Source: Pseudanabaena sp. FACHB-2040 (GTDB lineage Bacteria; Cyanobacteriota; Cyanobacteriia; Phormidesmidales; Phormidesmidaceae). Taken from it: a stretch of DNA of 64,000 bases. Both the position numbers and the translations under genes were made by a program. Each line of letters begins with the position of its first letter. Position 1 is the first letter of the stretch. The stretch is from positions 186,001 through 250,000 of the forward strand of contig NZ_JACJQO010000019.1 of NCBI RefSeq assembly GCF_014696715.1, in the 5' to 3' direction. The notes below the pieces were generated by a model, which did no database searches, had not been told where the DNA came from, and was given only the letters and a program-made list of their open reading frames with translations. Of this stretch, positions 47,961 through 51,698 are shown piece after piece.

Positions 47961-48225
47961 TGTGATTGCCTTAGCAATGTTGATTAATGAAAGCGTTTGC
48001 ATATCTAAGACGTATTTTAGGAAAGTTAGTTCCTTAAAAATAAGCCACCAACAGATTAGCTTGCAGCCGCTCCCCACAAAATTCAGCAGCATAACCGTCG
48101 CAACTGTCGGCCGTAGATAACCTTAAGCGCTCAGCAGGTAACCTTTTGGCGATCGGTATGCGTTGAAATTGTTAGGACGCGGTTTTTATCGATACGGTAT
48201 TCCAATCGACAAAATCCTAGGTTAA

Positions 48226-48888
48226 CTATCCTTCCCTAGAAGTTGTACTTGCTCCTCTACCTCGTCGAATTCGACCATAGAGTATTAGGCAGCCAGCACT
48301 CACCACTACCAAGGCAGACGATGGCTCAGAAACAGCAGCAGTCTGTGTGTTGAATTGGAACCGCCCACGTAGTGCAGGAGCGGTAGGACTCTCTGATCTT
48401 TGCAGAAACTCTGCATCAAAGGTCAAAATTTGCGAACGGTCAGGTGTAAAAGTTACTTCATTGATGGTGAAGCTACCAAAGACCTGGTTTGAACCACGGT
48501 TCTGAAAGGATATATCCAAACCTGCAAACCCAGGTGGCGCAAAGTCGGCTCGTCGAGCTTCGGGGTAGAATCCCGGCTGAATTGGGATACCTAATGCATC
48601 CGTTCCAAAAAATACAAGAGCGAATTCATTTTCAGGTGTCGATGAACGATCCAGAACCCAGAGCAACTCGGCGGGGCTACCATCGGATAGACTACGACGA
48701 ATCTCAGCAGAAATACTGTCACCAAGGTTAGTGTCATAAGTAATATCAAACGTGTTACCTGACCCTATGTAGTCACCAGGTTCACTGTCTAACATCAAAC
48801 GTGCAAAGTCTGCACGGGCTACCGTGGCTGTGCACGGAACTATTAACCCAGTTAGGACCATCAAAGAAACAAATTGACTACGAAGCAT
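48226..48888 (-). CDS. PEP-CTERM-like secreted protein
   Basis: The 220-residue protein has a signal peptide (hydrophobic 9-25, TVARA) and a beta-rich extracellular body. The C-terminus has a SEPSS-type motif (AAVSEPSSALVVVSAGCLILY), a hydrophobic segment and an Arg-rich tail (GRIRRGRG). This is a PEP-CTERM-like sorting signal, with the first Pro replaced by Ser. It is the second candidate of this type in the window, after the metzincin at 1504. No catalytic site is visible. Confidence 0.8.
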   Translation of the reverse strand: MLRSQFVSLMVLTGLIVPCTATVARADFARLMLDSEPGDYIGSGNTFDITYDTNLGDSISAEIRRSLSDGSPAELLWVLDRSSTPENEFALVFFGTDALGIPIQPGFYPEARRADFAPPGFAGLDISFQNRGSNQVFGSFTINEVTFTPDRSQILTFDAEFLQRSESPTAPALRGRFQFNTQTAAVSEPSSALVVVSAGCLILYGRIRRGRGASTTSREG

Positions 48889-49078
48889 TGAGATACTCCT
48901 TGTTAAATAAAAATTTGATTAAAGCTTAGAGACTGCACCCAACCAAACGCCCTCACAGCTATCTTTCAACTAAAGAAAGCCTAGTCATTCGAACCTCACA
49001 TCCCTACAACAATTGTTTAGAAATAAATTTTTCACCTAATATCCTAGTTTGGGTAACCAGGTGGACATGACTCTGTCC

Positions 49079-49153
49079 AACACTTCCATAGGGGTAATTA
49101 GGTGAAAACATGTCAGCTTAGCATCCATAAGGGGGATTAGGTTGAAAAATCAG
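49079..49153 (+). repeat. GATTAGGTGAAAA-type direct repeats, downstream copies
   Basis: Two copies, near 49079-49118 (AACACTTCCATAGGGG then TAATTAGGTGAAAA) and 49121-49153 (CCATAAGGGGGATTAGGTTG), share a CCATA-GGGG-ATTAGGT core. A weaker third copy precedes them near 49049. The same unit recurs at 50897-50933, on the other side of the nuclease gene. Confidence 0.65.
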
Positions 49154-49180
49154 TAAAAGTAAGATGTGTTAGGCGTAGCT

Positions 49181-49333: not shown

Positions 49334-50755
49334 CTAAGATTTGCTCGCCGATGGCTTAATTCTCCCGTCAACTATAATTTCAGGGACTTTCTTGCCAGAT
49401 TCTACATCTCTTTGTCTTCGTTTTTTTAGATTTTCAAAGGCCGTAATTTTGTCTGTATTTCTAATAACTAAAAGGATGCTGTGGCTCGCCCCTTCGGCTT
49501 CATTATAGATGGGCAGTTGGGCTGCGTAAGCATGGCTTAAATTATTTTTTGTGTATTTGATCTCTACGTTGACCTTGGCTTTGCCACTAGATAATTTAAA
49601 GTCAACAGGTCCACGACCAGCATCTGATTCTGGACTTAAATCCAGACTATTTGCATTACAATAGGCTTCCGCAATTCCAAAAAATAAGCGCTGAGCAAAT
49701 CTTTCATGTTTGCATTGATCATACTTATCCCAGAATACGATTGACAACCCATTTTTTTCAACAAGTTTTTTGAAATGATTACAAATTACAACAACCATTT
49801 CAAGAATATTTTCAGGAGAAACTACTTTATCAGTCTCAATCGAAAGAGGATATTTCTTAGAATACTCTTGTGCTATTTCTAGCCAATTAAATTCACCTAA
49901 AGGATCTTCTACAAAATCATAAGGCTCGGTTCTACTGGCTTTATACAACTCAATGAGTTCTCTTAAAGCATCAGGATTATCGATAAAGAGGCGCTTCAGT
50001 TCTGATTTTCTTAAACTCTTAAAAGCCTTTTCCCATTCTTCTCCTATCATTGAGTTTATTTGACTACGTAGTTTGGAGTTATGATCAACAACTTCATCAA
50101 TATCGCTTCTATCGTTTGCGACGGGAAAATCATTAAGTATTTCTTGCGGTATCAGAATTAAGGGGTTTTTTGTCCTCTTGTTAATTGGAAGTAAATATTC
50201 AACTCCACTTAATTCTACTTTTTGAGATTCTAGCTTTAACTTAGTCGCTTGATTTTCTGAGTATTTAGCAAGGTCAGGCAACATGATCCTTGCAGTCATA
50301 TCGCTAACTCTATCCGCGCCTATATTCTCTTCTAACAAACCAATAATCTCAAACATTTCAGGATCAGTTATTCCTACTTCGATTATTTCACGAGCAGTGA
50401 CCGCTAAATTTCTTGCTAGTTCTGGACCTATACCTCTCCCAGAATTTCCCTCGCTTGAATAGCCAAGACTCAAGAAGCCAGGCTCTTTGAAAGTCAGTAA
50501 CCTCACAGCATTACGGAAAAATATATCCTCACTACTCTTGGATTTGACTAATGTTTTAATTATTTTTTCAAAGTGCTTTCTAAAGTTCTCATATGAACCT
50601 TTTAATTCTTGAATATGTGTTTGCTTTAAAGGTCTTGGATCTAAATATAATCCTGAATCAATTCCAATAAAACCGTTAAAAATTTTTTCTCGATCAAGTA
50701 CCTCTGCCGAGACGTCTAGTACTTGGTTCAATTTATGTGTAGTTTGTTTACCCAT
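49334..50755 (-). CDS. PD-(D/E)xK nuclease-like protein, candidate defence gene
   Basis: The 473-residue protein has two visible parts. An N-terminal region contains GNSGRGIG (103-110) and IGADRVSDMT (145-154). A C-terminal region has GPVDFKL (Asp385) and VEIKY (Glu398-x-Lys400), with 12 residues between Asp and Glu: the D-(x)n-ExK core of restriction-endonuclease-like nucleases. The gene is clearly more AT-rich than all its neighbours. It sits alone between repeats. That composition and isolation, with a nuclease fold, are typical of anti-phage or mobile genes, but no partner gene is present. I do not recognise the family. Confidence 0.75.
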   Translation of the reverse strand: MGKQTTHKLNQVLDVSAEVLDREKIFNGFIGIDSGLYLDPRPLKQTHIQELKGSYENFRKHFEKIIKTLVKSKSSEDIFFRNAVRLLTFKEPGFLSLGYSSEGNSGRGIGPELARNLAVTAREIIEVGITDPEMFEIIGLLEENIGADRVSDMTARIMLPDLAKYSENQATKLKLESQKVELSGVEYLLPINKRTKNPLILIPQEILNDFPVANDRSDIDEVVDHNSKLRSQINSMIGEEWEKAFKSLRKSELKRLFIDNPDALRELIELYKASRTEPYDFVEDPLGEFNWLEIAQEYSKKYPLSIETDKVVSPENILEMVVVICNHFKKLVEKNGLSIVFWDKYDQCKHERFAQRLFFGIAEAYCNANSLDLSPESDAGRGPVDFKLSSGKAKVNVEIKYTKNNLSHAYAAQLPIYNEAEGASHSILLVIRNTDKITAFENLKKRRQRDVESGKKVPEIIVDGRIKPSASKS

Positions 50756-51452
50756 ATTAATTCAAGAAAACCTCAATGAATGCTAAGACCCACGCGGGTA
50801 TAGCGTTAAGTCTATATTTTCGAGGTTGACTGCTTGCGTTATTTTTAGTGACTGTTTCTGGTCAGGCTAACAATTACTTAGAGAGAAACTTTCTGCCCAA
50901 CACCCTAATTAGGGTGATTAGGTGAAAAAATTCAGTATAGCCATTATCTCTAGGGAAGTCGAATTGTTTAGGTTTTGTTTCCTGCCTATCAGCAGGCATT
51001 TGCACTTGACGGCAGGATAAGGCGGTTAACTGCTGCGAGAGCGTTGCTGTTTGAATCGATTTTGCAGGCAAATCTGACTCAAGACAGAACAGGTGAGCAT
51101 TGACTTGGGGTTGTAGGCGTAGCTCAGGGCGGCAAACCAGCATTACGTTACAAGACACCGCTGGCATCTGCAAAAAGTTTCCTCACACAGTTGACGTCTG
51201 CTTAGAGCACACCGTATTCTCATTCATTAAGCTGTCGTGCGCGGCAGCCTAGACACAGAACTCATGGACTTAGCGCCGCCTGCAAGTGTTCTCAGCACAA
51301 ACAGGCGACTGTTCCCCCGAAGCTGGTACAAGCAGTTCGGAGGCTTGGAGGTTAGTTTACCTCCCCTGCCGCCCCGATTGCACACAACCACGGGGCTGCT
51401 AGGAAAGTGAGTTCTGGTTTCCTAGTTCACACTACATAGGGACCAGAACCAC
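50756..51452. other. Gene-free 0.7 kb region with repeats and hairpins
   Basis: The left part contains the third flanking direct repeat (50897-50933). A 99-codon minus-strand frame at 50874-51173 overlaps that repeat and has no recognisable protein. The right part (51300-51440) has at least three hairpins: CGCCTG/CAGGCG, CCGAA/TTCGG and GCCCCG/CGGGGC. A structured RNA is possible, but no known family is recognised. Confidence 0.5.
50897..50933 (+). repeat. GATTAGGTGAAAA-type direct repeat, upstream copy
   Basis: AACACCCTAATTAGGG then TGATTAGGTGAAAAAATT matches the downstream unit at 49079 closely in the same orientation. It also contains the perfect palindrome CCCTAATTAGGG (50901-50912). Confidence 0.65.
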
Positions 51453-51698
51453 ATGTTTCAATCGAATGATTTGGGCGCTCAGCCGCCCACAGTTCCCCCT
51501 GCCCAATCTTCTCAACCTAAACCAAGGCGAGAGAAAGTTACCAACGTGCTTTACGGCAGTTTGGAAGCACTTGATCGCATGACCAAGCAGCTGCATACGC
51601 TCCACTATGCCGACCCCAACGACTGGAGCGACCCCATTCCCAGCGGCAGAGACAGCCAGTGGATGGTGGTTTTGATTAAGCATCTGCTGATTGAATAA
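51453..51698 (+). CDS. Small conserved hypothetical protein, 81 residues
   Basis: The protein has a disordered Pro/Gln-rich N-terminus and a C-terminal helix with LYGSLEALDRMTKQLHTLHYADPNDWSDP. The DPNDWSDP and WMVVLIKHLL segments look conserved. Its ATG follows an AGGGACC-containing leader. I do not recognise the family, and no function is proposed. It is followed by a palindromic repeat at 51732-51776. Confidence 0.7.
   Translation: MFQSNDLGAQPPTVPPAQSSQPKPRREKVTNVLYGSLEALDRMTKQLHTLHYADPNDWSDPIPSGRDSQWMVVLIKHLLIE

What the first reader, a model, noticed from the sequence alone, without database searches (positions are those of the whole stretch)
49334..50755. Undescribed PD-(D/E)xK nuclease-like gene in an AT-rich island
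The protein pairs a C-terminal D-x12-ExK core (Asp385, Glu398, Lys400) with an N-terminal region holding GNSGRGIG and IGADRVSDMT, which I cannot assign to a named family. The gene stands alone, is much more AT-rich than both flanks and lies between near-identical repeats. Stand-alone nucleases of this kind are often anti-phage genes.
Basis: partly seen in the sequence, partly recalled or inferred. Interest (0 to 1): 0.75.

Follow-up and report, generated by a model that had tools for sequence, protein, structure and literature searches.

The report
Likely anti-phage nuclease beside integron sites
This cyanobacterial gene encodes a two-part protein, an unidentified front domain joined to a DNA-cutting back domain; it belongs to a widespread unnamed bacterial family that sits among anti-virus genes, and here it lies between copies of a docking site used by gene-capturing elements called integrons.

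Summary
The ORF is real (49334-50755, minus, 473 aa, GC 36% against 53% for the window). The C-terminal D385-x12-E398-x-K400 motif holds: D in 106, E in 107, K in 108 of 108 relatives; AlphaFold2 (pLDDT 88) shows a PD-(D/E)xK-type core. The N-terminal domain (about 1-212) has its own invariant residues (E91, G98, G106, D148, D152), no Pfam name and no PDB fold match. It is not wholly undescribed: phrog_30194 matches full length (function unknown) and PADLOC candidate PDC-M36A matches the N-terminal domain only. The family is large (342 loci, many phyla), patchy, has no general partner, and lies beside integrases and defence genes. The 'near-identical repeats' are two diverged copies of the attI-like region that adjoins this genome's intact integron integrase on another contig. 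About six more copies are scattered over the genome; all but one are followed by attC cassette ends on the same strand. The window gene itself has no attC, but five cyanobacterial relatives have one 5-12 bp after their stop codon. Best reading: a single-gene anti-phage nuclease gated by its N-terminal domain, spread partly as an integron cassette. Defence activity is inferred, not shown.

The parts
49334..50755 (-). ORF of 473 aa, two-domain PD-(D/E)xK nuclease-like protein, phrog_30194 family
50120..50755 (-). N-terminal domain, residues 1-212, fold unassigned; invariant E91, G98, G106, D148, D152
49721..50119 (-). mostly helical linker, residues 213-345
   Evidence: secondary structure of the AlphaFold2 model
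49337..49720 (-). C-terminal PD-(D/E)xK nuclease domain, residues 346-473
49556..49603 (-). catalytic motif D385-x12-E398-x-K400
   Evidence: 106, 107 and 108 of 108 relatives
50892..50989 (-). attI-like region upstream of the gene, with one 41-bp repeat unit; attI-type end AAGTAATTGTTAGCCTG follows at 50863-50879
   Evidence: 76% over 98 nt to the region upstream of intI, E 2.9e-12; end motif with 2 mismatches (by itself within chance, 15 of 100 shuffles had a match)
49008..49158 (-). second attI-like region, downstream of the gene, with three repeat units
   Evidence: 72% over 151 nt to the region upstream of intI, E 1.3e-13
48226..48888 (-). next ORF in the same direction (220 aa, PEP-CTERM-like tail by eye), possible second cassette
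   Evidence: no Pfam or PADLOC hit
48088..48178 (-). attC-like site after that ORF
   Evidence: covariance model R2, 28.4 bits, E 1.3e-4 in 64 kb; not reported by model R1

Best explanation
The gene encodes a stand-alone anti-phage effector: a metal-dependent PD-(D/E)xK nuclease (C-terminal) that is held in check and aimed by an N-terminal domain of unassigned fold. That domain reads some sign of infection, for example DNA ends, modified DNA, or a ligand bound near the invariant acidic residues and glycine motif. On activation the protein cuts DNA, either the phage's or, as abortive infection, the cell's. It needs no conserved partner. It spreads on phages, plasmids and integrative elements, and in cyanobacteria also as an integron cassette; here it sits between two attI-like regions in cassette orientation, its own attC not detectable. 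Shown: the ORF, motif conservation, predicted fold, neighbourhood bias, attI-like regions, attC beside relatives. Inferred: catalysis, sensing, phage restriction, and that this copy arrived as a cassette.
For: Catalytic residues kept in 106-108 of 108 relatives; predicted nuclease core, pLDDT 88; N-terminal domain independently conserved and shared with a PADLOC defence candidate; 139 PADLOC models hit among 146 nearest neighbours against 9 among 141 distant ones; restriction, Septu, Dsr1-like and pPIWI-RE genes beside plasmid copies; integrase or resolvase nearby in 19 and 12 loci; patchy presence; attI-like regions on both sides; attC 5-12 bp after the stop in five relatives.
Against: No activity was measured. 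The neighbour counts are of models, many redundant, not of genes. The N-terminal fold matches nothing, so sensing is a guess. The window gene has no attC, so its cassette origin is not proven. A few relatives have lost the catalytic residues (L009; L011 and L022 altered), so nuclease activity is not universal.
Confidence: 0.6

Rival explanations
1. A stand-alone restriction enzyme, most likely modification-dependent (Type IV-like): the N-terminal domain reads a base or site directly and the nuclease cuts nearby, with no switch needed.
For: Weak fold similarity of the full model to the two-domain nickase Nt.BspD6I and to BamHI and OkrAI; plasmid copies beside Type IIG and Type IV restriction genes; no partner needed.
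Against: The Nt.BspD6I match has TM 0.17 and rmsd 23 A, so it is not a true superposition; the N-terminal domain alone matches no DNA-reading fold; no methyltransferase accompanies the family generally.
Confidence: 0.22
2. A selfish or mobility nuclease that helps its element (integron cassette, prophage or satellite) spread or persist and does not defend the host.
For: Frequent adjacency to integrases and resolvases, carriage on viral contigs and plasmids, integron sites here.
Against: The same family occurs on unrelated kinds of elements, and beside many known defence genes; integron cassettes move by IntI alone (general knowledge).
Confidence: 0.1
3. A housekeeping DNA-repair or DNA-processing nuclease.
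For: The superfamily includes repair nucleases, and weak matches to MUS81, XPF and a Holliday junction resolvase appear; recA lies nearby.
Against: Absent from most relatives, unusually AT-rich, no conserved neighbourhood.
Confidence: 0.04

Closest known systems
phrog_30194 (PHROGs, unknown function)
   Same: Full-length match, E 3.7e-100, residues 12-472: the same family.
   Different: No function assigned; nothing beyond the entry is known here.
PDC-M36A (PADLOC phage defence candidate)
   Same: Shares the N-terminal domain, residues 29-217, E 2.3e-11; ten distant relatives match likewise.
   Different: The model's C-terminal half is not matched; the candidate is a multi-gene system by name, whereas this gene stands alone.
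Shedu (SduA)
   Same: Single-gene defence with an N-terminal domain that gates a C-terminal PD-(D/E)xK nuclease (PMC12904381).
   Different: No SduA or DUF4263 match in Pfam or PADLOC; only a weak fold match to its nuclease domain (E 0.47).
Anti-phage gene cassettes of Vibrio and mobile integrons
   Same: Small single-gene defence genes carried between integron recombination sites (reviewed in PMC12409362).
   Different: Cyanobacterial host; attI-like regions lie far from the integrase; no attC after the window gene.

Membership tests
PD-(D/E)xK nuclease superfamily | Conserved D and (D/E)xK catalytic residues | tested here: met
   D385 106/108, E398 107/108, K400 108/108
PD-(D/E)xK nuclease superfamily | Core of helix, three strands, helix, strand | tested here: met
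   Element order in the AlphaFold2 model; fold matches are weak, none at E 0.001
PD-(D/E)xK nuclease superfamily | Metal-dependent cleavage of nucleic acid | not testable with these tools
   Needs purified protein
phrog_30194 | Full-length profile match | tested here: met
   E 3.7e-100, 12-472; all 84 aligned members match
PDC-M36A | Match over the whole model | tested here: not met
   Only model positions 27-220 of 457
PDC-M36A | Partner gene of the candidate system | tested here: inconclusive
   No general partner; four cyanobacterial loci have a 157-173 aa gene directly upstream, and the two of these scanned have no PADLOC hit
Shedu (SduA) | DUF4263 / SduA profile | tested here: not met
   No hit in Pfam or PADLOC up to E 10
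Restriction enzyme with cognate methyltransferase | Adjacent methyltransferase gene | tested here: inconclusive
   None recognised by eye among ORFs at 44-56 kb; these ORFs were not all scanned against a library
Integron gene cassette | attI-like region upstream, gene in cassette orientation | tested here: met
   50892-50989, 76% to the region upstream of intI, E 2.9e-12
Integron gene cassette | attC directly after the gene | tested here: not met
   None after the window gene; present after five relatives
Integron gene cassette | Excision and insertion by IntI | not testable with these tools
   An intact intI exists on contig C8; activity needs an experiment

The most novel reading that the evidence does not exclude
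The N-terminal domain is a new kind of infection sensor, perhaps with its own ligand-binding or catalytic site, that controls a nuclease in a widespread, untested single-gene immune family; and this cyanobacterium keeps a distributed integron, in which one integrase serves several attI-like landing sites spread over the genome, some holding defence-type genes.
Probability: 0.3. Interest if true: 0.8.

Novelty: new variant of a known kind. Interest (0 to 1): 0.55.

Why it matters
If the defence role holds, a family found in hundreds of species across many phyla, and on phages, plasmids and integrons, becomes a named, testable immune system with a sensor of unknown fold. The dispersed attI-like regions would extend the idea of integrons as stores of anti-phage genes to cyanobacteria and to sites away from the integrase.

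Tried and rejected
Pfam (best E 0.025, below cut-off), NCBIfam and phage records gave nothing. PDB by sequence gave no meaningful relative; the top hit, E 0.0015, is a fimbrial fusion matched over 31 residues. The first genome-contig scan with one protein found nothing and an 18-sequence alignment was too diverse for patterns, so four closer sequences were used. Fold search of the N-terminal domain gave nothing. A first attC search by strict rules found none in the window or at the family genes, and a second rule-based score did not clearly separate the family from control ORFs (at score 12, 3 of 120 against 12 of 1381), so covariance models were used. Model R1 contained four family sites, so its hits there are not independent; R2 contained none and is the one cited for relatives. 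The empty-site test in the same-genus genome failed because its contig ends there. IS ends or MITEs as the source of the repeats were set aside once the repeats matched the region beside intI. tRNA and Rfam scans were empty.

Full report
What is there. The ORF at 49334-50755 on the minus strand encodes 473 aa. Its GC is 35.9% against 53.0% for the window; only 6 of 1252 sliding windows of that size are as low. The genome is a 6.28-Mb cyanobacterium in 44 contigs, the window is C19:186001-250000, and the gene occurs once. That it is a cyanobacterium is inferred from its nearest relatives and gene content.

The protein. Across 108 full-length relatives D is kept in 106, E in 107 and K in 108; E351, E376 and Q413 in 108, 107 and 106. 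The N-terminal part has its own invariant set, E91, G98, G106, D148 and D152, with D33, D39, P40 and S151 nearly so. AlphaFold2 on 84 sequences gives mean pLDDT 87.7 and the order helix 351-368, strands 372-375, 386-390 and 393-401, helix 406-421, strand 425-432, as expected of a PD-(D/E)xK core with the catalytic residues on or beside the expected elements. Foldseek against the PDB gives weak hits only, among them Nt.BspD6I, Cdn1, SfsA, BamHI, OkrAI and the Shedu nuclease domain. The N-terminal domain modelled alone (pLDDT 90.4) matches nothing, best E 1.6.

What it is called. Pfam and NCBIfam have no family for it. PHROGs has phrog_30194, unknown function, E 3.7e-100 over residues 12-472. 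PADLOC's candidate PDC-M36A matches residues 29-217 at E 2.3e-11 but not the nuclease half; ten relatives, most of them distant, behave the same way. No paper in the held library names PDC-M36. The PDC names are phage defence candidates; [quoted passage not shown]

Where the family occurs. A four-sequence alignment found 342 loci in species genomes; the 80 kept span Cyanobacteriota, Chloroflexota, Planctomycetota, Pseudomonadota, Bacillota, Acidobacteriota, Actinomycetota and others. Sixteen plasmid records and 17 viral contigs carry it. Within the phylum it is rare: 8 of 386 genomes, and 8 of 97 nearer relatives, the window's own genome included in both.

Neighbours. No gene accompanies the family generally. 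The commonest neighbour clusters are tyrosine integrases (19 loci) and small resolvases (12 loci), several directly adjacent. The 146 nearest neighbours hit 139 PADLOC models at E 1e-10; 141 genes more than 6.5 kb away in the same loci hit 9. These are counts of models, many redundant, not of genes, so the size of the contrast is not exact. In plasmids the gene lies beside Type IV and Type IIG restriction genes, a Septu PtuA, a Dsr1-like SIR2 gene and a pPIWI-RE gene.

The repeats. Both resemble a 256-bp region on contig C8 directly upstream of an intact integron integrase gene (TIGR02249, 476 bits against a cut-off of 265): 72% over 151 nt, E 1.3e-13, and 76% over 98 nt, E 2.9e-12. On C8 this region holds three 41-bp direct repeats followed by AAACAATTGTTAGCCTG. 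I call it attI-like from its position; recombination there is not shown. The same search finds it at C1:183212, C5:117336, C5:1081974, C5:1153425 and, more briefly, C14:18650; a related 13-mer marks C8:99443.

Cassettes. An attC covariance model, R1, built from seven sites, found further sites at four loci that had not gone into it. In 1.58 Mb of family loci R2 reported eight matches with E up to 2, five of them 5-12 bp after the stop codon of a family gene: L003 (E 1.7e-6), L005 (2.2e-6), L027 (0.00096), L014 (0.11) and L025 (0.22). The last two are weak alone but fall in the same place. The five lie in three separate branches of the family tree. The attI-like regions at C8:184534, C1, C5:117336, C5:1081974, C5:1153425 and C8:99443 have an attC downstream on the same strand; none was found in the stretch fetched around C14. 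In the window R2 reports an attC at 48088-48178, after the next ORF in the same direction, E 1.3e-4 (8.5e-6 over 4 kb with filters off); R1 did not report it. No attC follows the nuclease gene.

In the gene's direction the order is: attI-like region, nuclease gene, second attI-like region, a 220-aa ORF, attC. The simplest account is that the nuclease gene came in as a cassette and lost its attC. Duplication of the attI-like region around an older gene is an alternative. An empty site in the same-genus genome would have decided, but its contig ends there.

Function. The gene is very likely a nuclease. That it defends against phage is inferred from company, carriers and patchiness. Integron cassettes include anti-phage genes in Vibrio and in mobile integrons (PMC12409362), which fits. 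The best-supported mechanism is an N-terminal domain that detects infection and releases the nuclease, as DNA-end binding does in Shedu (PMC12904381), but this is analogy: no sequence relation to Shedu was found. A restriction enzyme that reads a base or site directly is the main rival.

Noticed in passing
51171-51697, with small ORF 51453-51698 (+): A repeated element of about 530 bp: eleven further near-complete copies at 79-89% identity elsewhere in the genome, two of them (C1, C5) also abutting an attI-like region. No Pfam hit for its small ORF and no Rfam hit.
   Followed up: partly
L172:4370-5218 (contig C1): At another attI-like region, a gene with an HNH domain and a Type IV restriction (mREase_IV) match, E 3.9e-10, is followed by a strong attC (E 1.4e-17, but part of model R1): a second defence-type cassette in this genome.
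   Followed up: partly
L005, L006, L008, L011: In one cyanobacterial branch a 157-173 aa gene of no known family lies directly upstream of the nuclease gene (0-21 bp), perhaps a partner of that subfamily.
   Followed up: partly
L009, L011, L022: Members whose nuclease residues are lost or altered; L011 and L022 are also longer (660 and 695 aa), which hints at replaced effectors on the same N-terminal domain.
   Followed up: no
L036, L054, L073: By eye, attC-like inverted repeats also flank family genes in Sulfurimonas, Alteromonas and Psychromonas; the cyanobacterial models did not report them at those genes, so this is a lead only.
   Followed up: no
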